From: Lytechinus variegatus
Taxonomy: Eukaryota > Echinodermata > Echinoidea > Temnopleuroida > Toxopneustidae
DNA: 64,000 nucleotides
Direction of reading: 5' to 3'
Assembly (NCBI RefSeq): GCF_018143015.1
Contig: NC_054753.1
Location: forward strand, 31,409,292-31,473,291
Shown here piece by piece: positions 16,701 to 31,700 of this stretch; position 1 is the stretch's first letter, and each line of letters opens with the position of its first letter. A program made the translations under genes and the position numbers. The notes under the pieces were generated by a model. The model was not told where the DNA came from and made no database searches. It was given only the letters and a program-made list of their open reading frames with translations.

Positions 16701-19700
16701 AGTTTGGCTCAACCTAGGCTCATATAATTTGGTGTGTATGATACAAGCATGGATCTCAGGAAGCCTATTGATTTTAAGGTCCAAAGGTCAAGGTCACAGT
16801 GACATGCTTTCATCTTACCCTTTTGAAGTCCTTGTTAATGCGATAAATTTACCGGTAGTTGGACTTAACCTAGGCTCATATAATTTGGTGTGTATGATAC
16901 TAGCATAGATCCTAGGAATTCTATTGTATTTGAGGTCAGAAGGTCAAAGGTGAAGTCGCCACCTTCCACTTTTCTTGCCTAACCAATAACTCAATTTTCC
17001 GCGTTTCAGGCGGGCGTATTATGTGCTCGCCTTAGGGTCACTCTATGAATGTACACTTTCATGATGAATTTTTGGTTATAAAACAAAAGAAATGAAAATG
17101 TCTCTACCTAACAGAGAAAATCTGGCTTTGTTTGGGTAAAAAGAGAGCCACGTCACCCACTTTGTCCCTATTTTGGTATTGGGGTTAATCCTGTCTGTAC
17201 TTAATGTTTGGGTACTTTTGCAATTTCTGTATCTTTGATAACCTCGCAGTGTTGCTCTTTTAGCCCTCTATCTTTCCAAGTTTTAGCCCTTATCTTTCCA
17301 TGTTTTTAGCCCTCTATCTTTCCATGTTTTTAGCCCTCTATCTTTCCATGTTTTTAGCCCTCCATCTTTCCATGTTTTTAGCCCTCTATCTTTCCATGTT
17401 TTTAGCCCTTATCTTTCCATGTTTTTAGCCCTCTATCTTTCCATGTTTTTAGCCCTTATCTTTCCATGTTTTTAGCCCTCTATCTTTCCATGTTTTTAGC
17501 CCTCTATCTTTCCATGTTTTTAGCCCTCTATCTTTCCATGTTGTTAGCCCTCTATCTTTCCATGTTGTTAGCCCTCCATCTTTCCATGTTGTTAGCCCTC
17601 TATCTTTCCATGTTGTTAGCTCTCTATCTTTCCATGTTTTTAGCCCTCTATCTTTCCATGTTTTTAGCCCTCTATCTTTCCATGTTTTTAGCCCTCTATC
17701 TTTCCATGTTTTTAGCCCTCTATCTTTCCATGTTTTTAGCCCTCTATCTTTCCATGTTTTTAGCCCTCTATCTTTCCATGTTTTTAGCCCTCCATCTTTC
17801 CATGTTGTTAGCCCTCTATCTTTCCATGTTGTTAGCTCTCTATCTTTCCATGTTTTTAGCCCTCCATCTTTCCATGTTTTTAGCCCTCCATCTTTCCATG
17901 TTTTTAGCCCTCCATCTTTCCATGTTTTTAGCCCTCTATCTTTCCATGTTGTTAGCTCTCTATCTTTCCATGTTTTTAGCCCTCTATCTTTCCATGTTGT
18001 TAGCTCTCTATCTTTCCATGTTTTTAGCCCTCTATCTTTCCATGTTGTTAGCCCTCCATCTTTCCATGTTTTTAGCTCTCCATCTTTCCATGTTGTTAGC
18101 CCTCTATCTTTCCATGTTGTTAGCTCTCTATCTTTCCATGTTTTTAGCCCTCTATCTTTCCATGTTTTTAGCCCTCTATCTTTCCATGTTGTTAGCCCTC
18201 CATCTTTCCATGTTTTTAGCTCTCCATCTTTCCATGTTGTTAGCCCTCTATCTTTCCATGTTGTTAGCCCTCCATCTTTCCATGTTTTTAGCTCTCCATC
18301 TTTCCATGTTTTTAGCCCTCTATCTTTCCATGTTGTTAGCTCTCTATCTTTCCATGTTTTTAGCCCTCCATCTTTCCATGTTGTTAGCCCTCCATCTTTC
18401 CATGTTGTTAGCTCTCTATCTTTCCATGTTGTTAGCCCTCTATCTTTCCATGTTTTTAGCCCTCTATCTTTCCATGTTGTTAGCCCTCTATCTTTCCATG
18501 TTGTTAGCTCTCTATCTTTCCATGTTTTTAGCCCTCCATCTTTCCATGTTTTTAGCCCTCCATCTTTCCATGTTGTTAGCCCTCTATCTTTCCATGTTTT
18601 TAGCCCTCTATCTTTCCATGTTTTTAGCCCTCTATCTTTCCATGTTGTTAGCCCTCTATCTTTCCATGTTGTTAGCCCTCCATCTTTCCATGTTTTTAGC
18701 CCTCTATCTTTCCTTGTTGTTAGCCCTCTATCTTTCCATGTTGTTAGCCCTCTATCTTTCCATGTTTTTAGCCCTCTATCTTTCCATGTTTTTAGCCATC
18801 TATCTTTCCATGTTGTTAGCCCTCTATCTTTCCATGTTGTTAGCCCTCCATCTTTCCATGTTTTTAGCCCTCTATCTTTCCATGTTTTTAGCCCTCTATC
18901 TTTCCATGTTGTTAGCCCTCTATCTTTCCATGTTGTTAGCCCTCCATCTTTCCATGTTTTTAGCCCTCTATCTTTCCATGTTTTTAGCCCTCTATCTTTC
19001 CATGTTTTTAGCCCTCCATCTTTCCATGTTGTTAGCCCTCTATCTTTCCATGTTTTTAGCCCTCTATCTTTCCATGTTGTTAGCCCTCTATCTTTCCATG
19101 TTGTTAGCCCTCTATCTTTCCATGTTGTTAGCTCTCTATCTTTCCATGTTGTTAGCCCTCCATCTTTCCATGTTGTTAGCCCTCTATCTTTCCATGTTGT
19201 TAGCTCTCTATCTTTCCATATTGTTAGCCCTCCATCTTTCCATGTTGTTAGCCCTCCATCTTTCCATGTTGTTAGCCCTCTATCTTTCCATGTTGTTAGC
19301 TCTCTATCTTTCCATGTTGTTAGCCCTCTATCTTTCCATGTTGTTAGCTCTCTATCTTTCCATGTTGTTAGCCCTCTATCTTTCCATGTTTTTAGCCCTC
19401 TATCTTTCCATGTTTTTAGCCCTCTATCTTTCCATGTTTTTAGCCCTCTATCTTTCCATGTTGTTAGCCCTCTATCTTTCCATGTTGTTAGCCCTCCATC
19501 TTTCCATGTTGTTAGCCCTCTATCTTTCCATGTTTTTAGCCCTCTATCTTTCCATGTTGTTAGCCCTCTATCTTTCCATGTTGTTAGCTCTCTATCTTTC
19601 CATGTTGTTAGCCCTCCATCTTTCCATGTTTTTAGCCCTCTATCTTTCCTTGTTGTTAGCCCTCTATCTTTCCATGTTGTTAGCCCTCTATCTTTCCATG

Positions 19701-28700: not shown

Positions 28701-31700
28701 TTAGCCCTCTATCTTTCCATGTTGTTAGCTCTCTATCTTTCCATGTTGTTAGCCCTCTATCTTTCCATGTTTTTAGCCCTCTATCTTTCCATGTTGTTAG
28801 CCCTCTATCTTTCCATGTTTTTAGCCCTCTATCTTTCCATGTTGTTAGCCCTCTATCTTTCCATGTTTTTAGCCCTCTATCTTTCCATGTTTTTAGCCCT
28901 CTATCTTTCCATGTTTTTAGCCCTCTATCTTTCCATGTTGTTAGCCCTCCATCTTTCCATGTTGTTAGCCCTCTATCTTTCCATGTTTTTAGCCCTCTAT
29001 CTTTCCATGTTGTTAGCCCTCTATCTTTCCATGTTGTTAGCCCTCTATCTTTCCATGTTGTTAGCCCTCTATCTTTCCATGTTTTTAGCCCTCTATCTTT
29101 CCATGTTGTTAGCCCTCTATCTTTCCATGTTGTTAGCTCTCTATCTTTCCATGTTGTTAGCCCTCTATCTTTCCATGTTTTTAGCCCTCTATCTTTCCAT
29201 GTTTTTAGCCCTCTATCTTTCCATGTTTTTAGCCCTCTATCTTTCCATGTTTTTAGCCCTCCATCTTTCCTTGTTGTTAGCCCTCTATCTTTCCATGTTG
29301 TTAGCCCTCTATCTTTCCATGTTTTTAGCCCTCTATCTTTCCATGTTGTTAGCCCTCTATCTTTCCATGTTGTTAGCCCTCTATCTTTCCATGTTGTTAG
29401 CCCTCTATCTTTCCATGTTTTTAGCCCTCTATCTTTCCATGTTTTTAGCCCTCTATCTTTCCATGTTGTTAGCCCTCCATCTTTCCATGTTGTTAGCCCT
29501 CTATCTTTCCATGTTGTTAGCTCTCTATCTTTCCATGTTGTTAGCCCTCTATCTTTCCATGTTTTTAGCCCTCTATCTTTCCATGTTTTTTGCCCTCTAT
29601 CTTTCCATGTTTTTAGCCCTCTATCTTTCCATGTTTTTAGCCCTCCATCTTTCCTTGTTTTTAGCCCTCTATCTTTCCATGTTTTTAGCCCTCTATCTTT
29701 CCATGTTTTTAGCCCTCTATCTTTCCATGTTTTTAGCCCTCTATCTTTCCATGTTTTTAGCCCTCTATCTTTCCATGTTGTTAGCCCTCTATCTTTCCAT
29801 GTTTTTAGCCCTCTATCTTTCCATGTTTTTAGCCCTCTATCTTTCCATGTTTTTAGCCCTCTATCTTTCCATGTTTTTAGCCCTCTATCTTTCCATGTTT
29901 TTAGCCCTCCATCTTTCCATGTTTTTAGCCCTCTATCTTTCCATGTTGTTAGCCCTCTATCTTTCCATGTTTTTAGCCCTCTATCTTTCCATGTTTTTAG
30001 CCCTCTATCTTTCCATGTTTTTAGCCCTCTATCTTTCCATGTTTTTAGCCCTCTATCTTTCCATGTTTTTAGCCCCTATCTTTCCATTTGTCTCACTGTT
30101 ATAAGTTGGCTGGTATGGCATATGCATGTCACATTTTTTTTATTAGTGAAATAATGGGGGATCATGAACTTAGTTTTATAACCCATCTTTTTTTTCCTTC
30201 TTCATTTTCCAATTAGACAACATTTCTTGATGAATCGCTTCCTAGGCATTAACCTTCAACTCATAAATCATTTAATGATTTTGTCTTTCAGGTCAAGTAT
30301 TAAGCGCTCATGTTGCAGGTCGTGTTGTGATGAAGAGTTATCTAAGTGGGATGCCAGAGTGTAAGTTTGGCATGAATGACAAGATCACACTTGACAGACA
30401 AGGAAAGGGAGATGATCCAGCAAAAAGGTATTAATCTCCTGTTAAAGTTTTACTATCCATGAATAGCTAAAGTTTTGCAAATAATTTACATGTGAGGATG
30501 GGTTTTTGGTGATGCTAATTACTCTATGTGCAATACATGTAGTACAACAACAATCCAGATGCTCTACATGTATCTAAGCCTGAGTCGAATTGTCAAATCG
30601 ATTTTAAAATTGGTATTAGATCGATGTCATCGAGCATTGGTGCAGATTTTGCAAAATCGGTGCATAGAAAAAAAAATTGACAGCGTGATCAAAGGAAAGA
30701 AATGAGGCCGTTTCGTTTGGTACACACAACAAAATGAACAGTAACGTCTAACTTATCTACTACTCACTTGGTTTATATTCCCCCCAAATGAGACCTTTTG
30801 TGTAATTATGATGCCTTTCACCATTAATTTGAAGTTAATTTTGATCCTAGTTCGAGTCTCGTTCGTCTGTCCGTGCATGATGAATTAATGAATGGAATTT
30901 ATCGTCATCGATCGTGCATGTGCACAGTGCTAATGAAAGTTGGCACAAATATCCATCTTGGGGTAAAAACATACAAGGTGTTGTAAATGGGTGCCCGGTA
31001 GGGTGAAATTTCTTGAATAATTGATGCGCCCGATGAGGGTAGCCGTGCTAAAGCCAGGGTAATAGAAACATTTGTATTAAGCGCTATATAAATGTTGCAT
31101 ATAATATTATTAAGATTCATTTTCTAAATGTTTTGGGGAAACTGTATTACCATGGTATTACCATAGGGCAGGGGGATTAATCACCTTCAGTGATATTTTT
31201 TTTCACTTTCAGGTTGGTGTATTCAAAAGTACTTTGTTTTTGTTTTACTTTTCGTCAGTATATAACCTGTAAACTCTTGTCTTTCTCTAGGCCAGGGACT
31301 TTCGGGTTTTTTTCTTTTCGGGTACCCGTGGTAATTTTCGGGCGGGTACCCGAAAATTATGTCGCTCGAAATATGTCTGGTGGAAAAACCCCATAGGTGA
31401 CGTCATCATCAAGCCAATGCGATGCAAGCCAATTTATGAATGAAAATATAGTAAGCATGCGCATTGCAAGCCTCAGCCCCACGCAGTATTCCGTCAAAAC
31501 GAGTCTGCAATACTCTGTTACCTCGTACCAAAATCGACCTAGAAATCCACTTTTCTATATTTTATATGAATTATAAAAGGTATTCTCAGAGGATCTGTTT
31601 TCCCACCGATACCGCACTGGTAAGCAAATTTTTATTACTTCTTGCTTTTCCGTCAAAATCTTACGAAGTAGCGTCGATATTACATAGTGTTCGTGAGTTT

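What the first reader, a model, noticed from the sequence alone, without database searches (positions are those of the whole stretch)
17257..30087. A 12.8-kb, roughly 530-unit 24-bp minisatellite inside a constitutive endocytosis gene
The array fills most of AP2M1 intron 4 and has no interspersed unique DNA. Arrays of this size within an essential gene's intron are unusual and should be polymorphic in length. It could affect transcription time, splicing or chromatin.
Basis: seen in the sequence. Interest (0 to 1): 0.75.

Follow-up and report, generated by a model that had tools for sequence, protein, structure and literature searches.

The report
Huge variable repeat inside AP2M1 intron
One intron of a sea urchin's essential endocytosis gene AP2M1 is almost entirely a 24-letter unit repeated about 535 times and essentially absent from the rest of the genome, and a second assembled copy of the locus has only about 288 repeats with a different mix of variants: a fast-changing repeat that is most likely tolerated rather than useful.

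Summary
Window 17258-30087 (12,830 bp) is about 535 head-to-tail 24-bp units without unique DNA, 93% of the 13,775-bp intron between coding exons 4 and 5 of an intact AP2M1. The unit is private to this intron: of 817 genome-wide matches (up to 3 mismatches), 815 lie in this array or in one second AP2M1 copy. That copy lies 0.8 Mb away, inverted, in a mirror-image duplication (arms at least 0.97 Mb, sampled at five points) with a 500-bp assembly gap near its centre: most simply the other haplotype left in the assembly. There the array has about 288 units (6,908 bp). The coding sequences differ at 1 of 1,293 sites, yet unit variants are nearly disjoint and unit order shares nothing beyond chance. 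So the array is hypervariable. Best explanation: a locus-private minisatellite (intronic VNTR), expanded in place and removed with the intron. Each unit resembles a polypyrimidine-AG acceptor, but this array lacks donors, poly(A) signals and nearly all branch-point matches, and 82 of 286 units in the other copy have lost the AG, so no maintained splicing role is seen. A PTB-sponge role is not supported. Known kind; unusually large. Any effect on splicing is untested.

The parts
17258..30087 (+). 24-bp minisatellite array, consensus TTTTAGCCCTCTATCTTTCCATGT, about 535 units, 77% pyrimidine on the sense strand
   Evidence: TRF; unit segmentation; pyrimidine fraction
16517..30291 (+). coding intron 4 of AP2M1 (13,775 bp)
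   Evidence: splice sites and CDS
16381..16516 (+). AP2M1 coding exon 4
   Evidence: tblastn; splice site
30292..30427 (+). AP2M1 coding exon 5
   Evidence: PDB sequence match to AP-2 mu, E 1.1e-18
10673..37620 (+). AP2M1 coding region, 10 coding exons, 1,293 nt (430 codons plus stop), intact
30088..30291 (+). 204-bp unique stretch between array and exon 5; yUnAy branch-point matches at -43, -32 and -20 (and further out), last AG before the acceptor at -48
18650..21674 (+). approximate span of an exact 45-unit variant-order duplication at a lag of 81 units (about 1.9 kb): a block duplication inside the array
   Evidence: unit indices 58-102 and 139-183, converted to bases by hand, approximate

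Best explanation
It is a locus-private, hypervariable minisatellite (an intronic VNTR) that expanded in place from a 24-bp seed in coding intron 4 of the sea urchin's AP2M1. It grows and shrinks by duplication and deletion of blocks of one to tens of units (slippage or unequal exchange), which also replaces the unit variants. It is transcribed as part of the pre-mRNA and removed with the intron. It is tolerated because it contains no consensus 5' splice sites, no poly(A) signals, almost no branch-point matches (in this copy) and no stable structure, while the true acceptor of exon 5 has its own candidate branch points downstream of every decoy AG. Shown: array, gene context, genome-wide privacy, length and variant difference between the two assembled copies, absence of the named signals. 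Inferred: that the two copies are alleles, that the array is spliced out without consequence, and the mutational mechanism.
For: Array and purity. Private unit: a 32-base pattern has 303 forward + 116 reverse hits in 869.6 Mb, exactly those counted in the window (303) and in the second AP2M1 copy (116); with up to 3 mismatches the 24-mer has 817 hits = 529 + 286 + 2 elsewhere. The second copy's array is 6,908 bp with the same boundary sequence at both ends. CDS differs at 1 of 1,293 sites, synonymous; intron-4 left flank at 7 of 741. Variant turnover: TTG units 258 of 534 in A against 0 of 286 in B; TTATCCC 0 of 534 against 82 of 286; GATxTT 1 against 31. Longest shared variant order 8 units; 20 shuffle pairs mean 7.0, max 9. 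Block duplication of 45 units in A; 20 shuffles max 13. Signals in array A: GTRAG 0 (19.9 expected from the rest of the window), AATAAA/ATTAAA 0 (28.0), yUnAy 4 (304). Sense strand, two 144-nt stretches as RNA and one as DNA: folding no better than shuffles.
Against: No reads, RNA data or other individuals could be examined. The second copy could be a true recent duplication instead of an allele. Unit AGs score at the 95th-99th percentile of 2,606 background AGs for acceptor likeness, and the commonest unit (7.8) outscores 3 of 9 real acceptors of the gene scored leave-one-out, so some influence on splicing cannot be excluded. Copy B is not short of branch-point matches to the same degree (83 in 6.9 kb). 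Absence of donors and poly(A) signals follows easily from repeating one 24-mer and is not itself evidence of selection. Array B shows no block duplication beyond chance (14 units, shuffle max 15).
Confidence: 0.8

Rival explanations
1. A splicing-active VNTR: about 530 polypyrimidine-AG decoy acceptors compete with the exon 5 acceptor (for U2AF or scanning), so that array length tunes exon 4-5 splicing or AP2M1 output, as VNTR length goes with exon 19 skipping in human ABCA7.
For: 530 AGs in array A, mostly at the 95th-99th percentile of 2,606 background AGs by a matrix from the gene's own nine acceptors; the ABCA7 intronic 25-bp VNTR of similar size correlates with exon skipping (PMC5954066, abstract and sections 18 and 21 read).
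Against: yUnAy matches almost absent in A (4 against 304 expected) though not in B (83), and no GTRAG donors in either. In the other copy 82 of 286 units have lost the AG, with the CDS intact. The real acceptor has candidate branch points at -43, -32 and -20 with no AG between them and the acceptor.
Confidence: 0.1
2. Intronic RNA sponge for polypyrimidine-tract binding protein or a similar factor, like the human repeat RNA PNCTR.
For: 77% (A) and 80% (B) pyrimidine, and one UCUUUC in nearly every unit (534 against 7.8 expected in A).
Against: The PTBP1 motifs YUCUYY/YYUCUY counted in PNCTR (passages of PMC6224606) are not enriched: 58 in A against 98.1 expected from the rest of the window, 0 in B.
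Confidence: 0.03
3. The assembled array length is wrong, collapsed or inflated by long-read assembly.
For: A 12.8-kb near-perfect 24-bp array is hard to assemble; this assembly has a duplicated block beside a 500-bp gap.
Against: No N in the window, and only 7 of 535 units are off length, one partial aside. Array A contains ordered, locally distinct variant blocks, and both copies hold multi-kilobase arrays with the same boundaries.
Confidence: 0.12
4. The second AP2M1 is a true second gene in a megabase palindrome, not an allele.
For: Both CDS intact and near identical; 5 of 5 tested probes have a mirrored partner on the same scaffold.
Against: A 500-bp N gap lies about 2 kb from the centre of symmetry, with the left arm running up to it, as when two haplotype contigs are scaffolded head to head. 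Probe identity varies from 97 to 100% along the arms, as between haplotypes. Bindin likewise appears at two places on one scaffold.
Confidence: 0.12
5. A translated array: the 24-bp period leaves frames open for up to 2,734 codons.
For: Long stop-free frames on both strands.
Against: Any stop-free 8-codon frame stays open when repeated; by a hand estimate about two of three random frames would. The 23-bp units shift the frame, and the array lies between matching splice sites of a conserved gene.
Confidence: 0.01

Closest known systems
Human ABCA7 intron 18 VNTR (25-bp unit; PMC5954066 abstract and sections 18, 21; PMC6857246 passages)
   Same: Intronic minisatellite of nearly the same unit length, imperfect units, multi-kilobase alleles (298-10,678 bp, up to about 427 units), large length difference between alleles of one person (9,711 and 837 bp).
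   Different: Unrelated sequence. In ABCA7 the first GT of the array is the exon 18 donor; here the units are acceptor-like and lie 741 bp from the donor and 204 bp from the acceptor. A correlation with exon skipping is shown for ABCA7, untested here. This array is longer (12,830 bp).
Human minisatellite VNTRs in general (PMC8096271, search listing and start of abstract only)
   Same: Copy-number variable tandem arrays with units of 7 bp or more.
   Different: I believe the array length here is extreme for the class; that is recalled, not measured.
PNCTR repeat RNA (PMC6224606, passages)
   Same: Long pyrimidine-rich tandem repeat transcript.
   Different: PNCTR is a noncoding RNA with 2,178 PTBP1 motifs; this array is not enriched in them.
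Satellite-filled giant introns of Drosophila Y-linked genes (recalled, nothing read)
   Same: Tandem repeats fill an intron of an intact gene.
   Different: Those introns are megabase-scale with very short satellite units in heterochromatin (recalled).

Membership tests
Minisatellite / intronic VNTR | Head-to-tail units of about 7-100 bp, long array, imperfect copies | tested here: met
   24-bp unit, 534.9 copies, 95% matches
Minisatellite / intronic VNTR | Single genomic locus, not dispersed satellite DNA | tested here: met
   815 of 817 matches with up to 3 mismatches lie in the two AP2M1 copies
Minisatellite / intronic VNTR | Copy number differs between alleles | tested here: inconclusive
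   535 against about 288 units in two assembled copies; allelism inferred from mirror symmetry and the N gap near its centre, no population data
Splicing-modifying intronic VNTR (ABCA7-like) | Array length alters splicing of the neighbouring exons | not testable with these tools
   No RNA data; acceptor-like AG lost in 82 of 286 units of the other copy
PTBP1-binding repeat RNA (PNCTR-like) | High density of YUCUYY/YYUCUY motifs | tested here: not met
   58 against 98.1 expected in A, 0 in B
Dispersed satellite DNA | Same unit at many genomic places | tested here: not met
   2 near-matches outside the two AP2M1 copies in 869.6 Mb; a hand estimate for chance is about 0.35

The most novel reading that the evidence does not exclude
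A decoy-acceptor array: several hundred tandem polypyrimidine-AG elements without donors form a length-variable sink for early 3' splice-site factors in an essential gene's pre-mRNA, so that allele length (12.8 against 6.9 kb) sets AP2M1 splicing speed or output.
Probability: 0.08. Interest if true: 0.65.

Novelty: new member of a known kind. Interest (0 to 1): 0.36.

Why it matters
It is a clean natural test of how much tandem repeat an essential, constitutively spliced gene tolerates in one intron. Two versions that differ by about 5.9 kb of repeat and by unit variants, with near-identical coding sequence, appear to coexist in one sequenced animal. One synonymous difference (CDS position 741) could serve as an allele tag for expression. 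It also shows near-complete turnover of array content while most flanking blocks differ by only 0.2-1.4% substitutions (11 of 13 collinear blocks over 1 kb).

Tried and rejected
PTB sponge: motif count below background. Secondary structure as driver or signal: sense RNA (2 stretches) and both DNA strands (1 stretch) no better than shuffles; the antisense RNA of that stretch folded better than most shuffles (z -2.14; 4 of 200 as good), not pursued. Coding array: long open frames are expected from a 24-bp period. Dispersed satellite: not met. Selection on the AG: not supported, 82 of 286 units in copy B carry TTATCCC. Precursor of the unit elsewhere in the window: 9 places with at most 8 of 24 mismatches outside the array, none array-like. 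Ten of the longer ORFs of the window gave no Pfam family (10 of 10). Literature: AP2M1 + tandem repeat + intron gave 5 papers, and from their titles and abstract starts none concerns an intronic array; sea urchin + minisatellite terms matched 265 papers, of which I saw the first 10, none on AP2M1 by title and abstract start. Species: three paper searches (listings only, 12 of 3,076, 10 of 19 and 10 of 160 seen) gave no identification. Bindin matches point to a sea urchin (family range recalled); 870 Mb, and hits only on scaffolds C1-C19 in the lists, fit Lytechinus variegatus from recall only.
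Full report
Observation. The array is real and the coordinates are right to one base: 17258-30087, period 24, 534.9 copies, 95% matches. 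Cutting it into units gives 535, of which 527 are exactly 24 bp, 7 are 23 bp and one is partial. There is no unique DNA inside. The strand is strongly skewed (in 1-kb windows wholly inside the array GC skew -0.44 to -0.51, AT skew -0.58 to -0.60) and 77% pyrimidine in the direction of the gene.

Gene. The window holds an intact AP2M1: ten coding exons from 10673 to 37620, 1,293 nt, all nine introns with GT-AG ends once exon 3's start is set to 15715. Exon 5 matches AP-2 mu structures at E 1.1e-18. The array lies in the intron from 16517 to 30291 (13,775 bp), 741 bp after the donor and 204 bp before the acceptor, and is 93% of it.

Where else is the unit? The window lies in a held genome of 869.6 Mb in 33 contigs. 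A 32-base pattern occurs 303 times forward and 116 times in reverse. Exactly 303 are in the window and 116 in the held stretch around a second AP2M1 copy on the same scaffold, C14, near 32.25 Mb in opposite orientation. With up to three mismatches the 24-mer occurs 817 times: 529 in the window, all inside the array, 286 in the second copy and 2 elsewhere, one of which is listed, on C1. By a hand estimate with equal base frequencies chance would give about 0.35. So this is not a dispersed satellite.

Second copy. Its array is 6,908 bp (C14:32253789-32260696; L006 3789-10000 plus L007 1-696), with 287 core matches and the same junction sequence at both ends. The mirror is large: 31.65 Mb pairs with 32.01 Mb (100%), 31.82 with 31.845 (99%), 31.30 with 32.37 (98%), 31.00 with 32.67 (99%), 32.80 with 30.85 (97%): 5 of 5 tested probes, out of 8 one-kilobase pieces fetched (L036, L038 and L040 were not tested). 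A 500-bp run of N lies at C14:31830223-31830722. The left arm runs up to this gap; its partner begins about 4.9 kb beyond it, so the gap lies about 2 kb from the centre of the innermost pair. Within the compared stretch the first 10.5 kb (C14:31389292-31399851) found no collinear match over 400 bp in the held part of copy 2, so the arms also differ by large gaps. The simplest reading is two haplotype contigs of one diploid animal scaffolded head to head. A true palindrome is not excluded. The 31.82-Mb probe also has a third near-identical place at 28.417 Mb, which I do not explain.

Turnover. Of 13 collinear blocks over 1 kb, 12 are 96.6-99.6% identical, gaps counted, and one, over a smaller tandem array, is 93.0%; substitutions alone are 0.2-1.4% in 11 of the 13 and 2.3% and 5.3% in the other two (rates computed by hand from its table). 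The intron-4 left flank differs at 7 of 741 sites. The short right flank is 97.8% identical over 139 bases by BLAST; a forced alignment across its indels gave 158 matches, 10 mismatches and 38 gaps. The CDS differs at 1 of 1,293 sites, synonymous. Yet the arrays hardly share variants beyond the consensus and CCAT: TTG units 258 of 534 against 0 of 286; AGCTC 58 against 0; TTATCCC 0 against 82; GATxTT 1 against 31; CCAT 88 against 26. The longest run of identical unit order is 8, within shuffle range (mean 7.0, max 9, 20 shuffle pairs). Inside A an exact 45-unit block recurs at a lag of 81 units, and 19- and 17-unit blocks recur at lags 95 and 122; B shows no such block beyond chance (14 units, shuffle max 15). 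For A this is what growth by block duplication gives. Copy B also has an insertion of about 1.7 kb between array and exon 5, with 8-bp near-identical target duplications and inverted ends, hAT-like from recall.

Does it do anything? Each unit reads as a polypyrimidine tract ending in AG. With a matrix from the gene's own nine acceptors, 509 of the 530 AGs of A fall on the four commonest scores, 5.5-7.8, which is the 95th-99th percentile of 2,606 other AGs in the window; real acceptors score 2.3-13.5 leave-one-out. But array A has 0 GTRAG donors (19.9 expected from the rest of the window), 0 AATAAA/ATTAAA (28.0) and 4 yUnAy (304) (these consensus motifs are recalled). In copy B 82 of 286 units have lost the AG, and B has 83 yUnAy matches, so the scarcity of branch-point matches holds for A and much less for B. 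The exon 5 acceptor has its own candidate branch points at -43, -32 and -20, downstream of every decoy AG. The most likely outcome is that the spliceosome ignores the array. PTB motifs are not enriched, and the sense RNA is no more structured than shuffles.

Comparison. The closest documented case I found is the human ABCA7 intron 18 VNTR: 25-bp unit, alleles of 298 to 10,678 bp, exon 19 skipping rising with length (PMC5954066: abstract, sections 18 and 21). The present array is of the same kind, somewhat longer, unrelated in sequence, and acceptor-like rather than starting at a donor. Membership in intronic minisatellites is met by two of three tested features, and the third, allelic length difference, is inconclusive for want of population data; a splicing function is not testable here.

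Verdict. Observation confirmed; interpretation partly supported; a new and large member of a known kind, with the bonus that the assembly itself seems to hold two very different alleles.

Noticed in passing
window 35031-35358 (intron 6 of AP2M1): Three decayed tandem copies (119-bp period) of the acceptor and 5' part of AP2M1 exon 7, with the acceptor AG lost (CAACTG for CAACAG) and a shared 4-bp deletion, sit directly before the real exon 7; the second copy of the locus has three as well.
   Followed up: partly
C14:30.85-32.80 Mb, N gap 31830223-31830722: Mirror-image duplication with arms of at least about 0.97 Mb and a 500-bp N gap near its centre, probably two haplotypes placed head to head; the window lies in one arm.
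   Followed up: yes
C13:18.60 Mb and 24.95 Mb: Bindin, usually single-copy in sea urchins (recalled), matches at two places on one scaffold: perhaps another unpurged haplotype or a true duplication.
   Followed up: no
C14:28417295-28417753 (piece of L039): A third near-identical copy of sequence from near the mirror's centre lies 3.4 Mb away.
   Followed up: no
copy 2, about C14:32251922-32253632, between array and exon 5: Insertion of about 1.7 kb with 8-bp near-identical target duplications (CATAATTC/CATAAATC) and inverted ends, hAT-like (recalled), present in one of the two copies.
   Followed up: partly
window 59359-59430 (-): tRNA-family match (Rfam RF00005, 39.8 bits) that ARAGORN does not call: possibly a tRNA pseudogene or a tRNA-derived repeat.
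   Followed up: no
window 12669-13027, 34159-34673, 47316-47923: Smaller tandem arrays (periods 153, 55 and 156 bp) in the same window.
   Followed up: no
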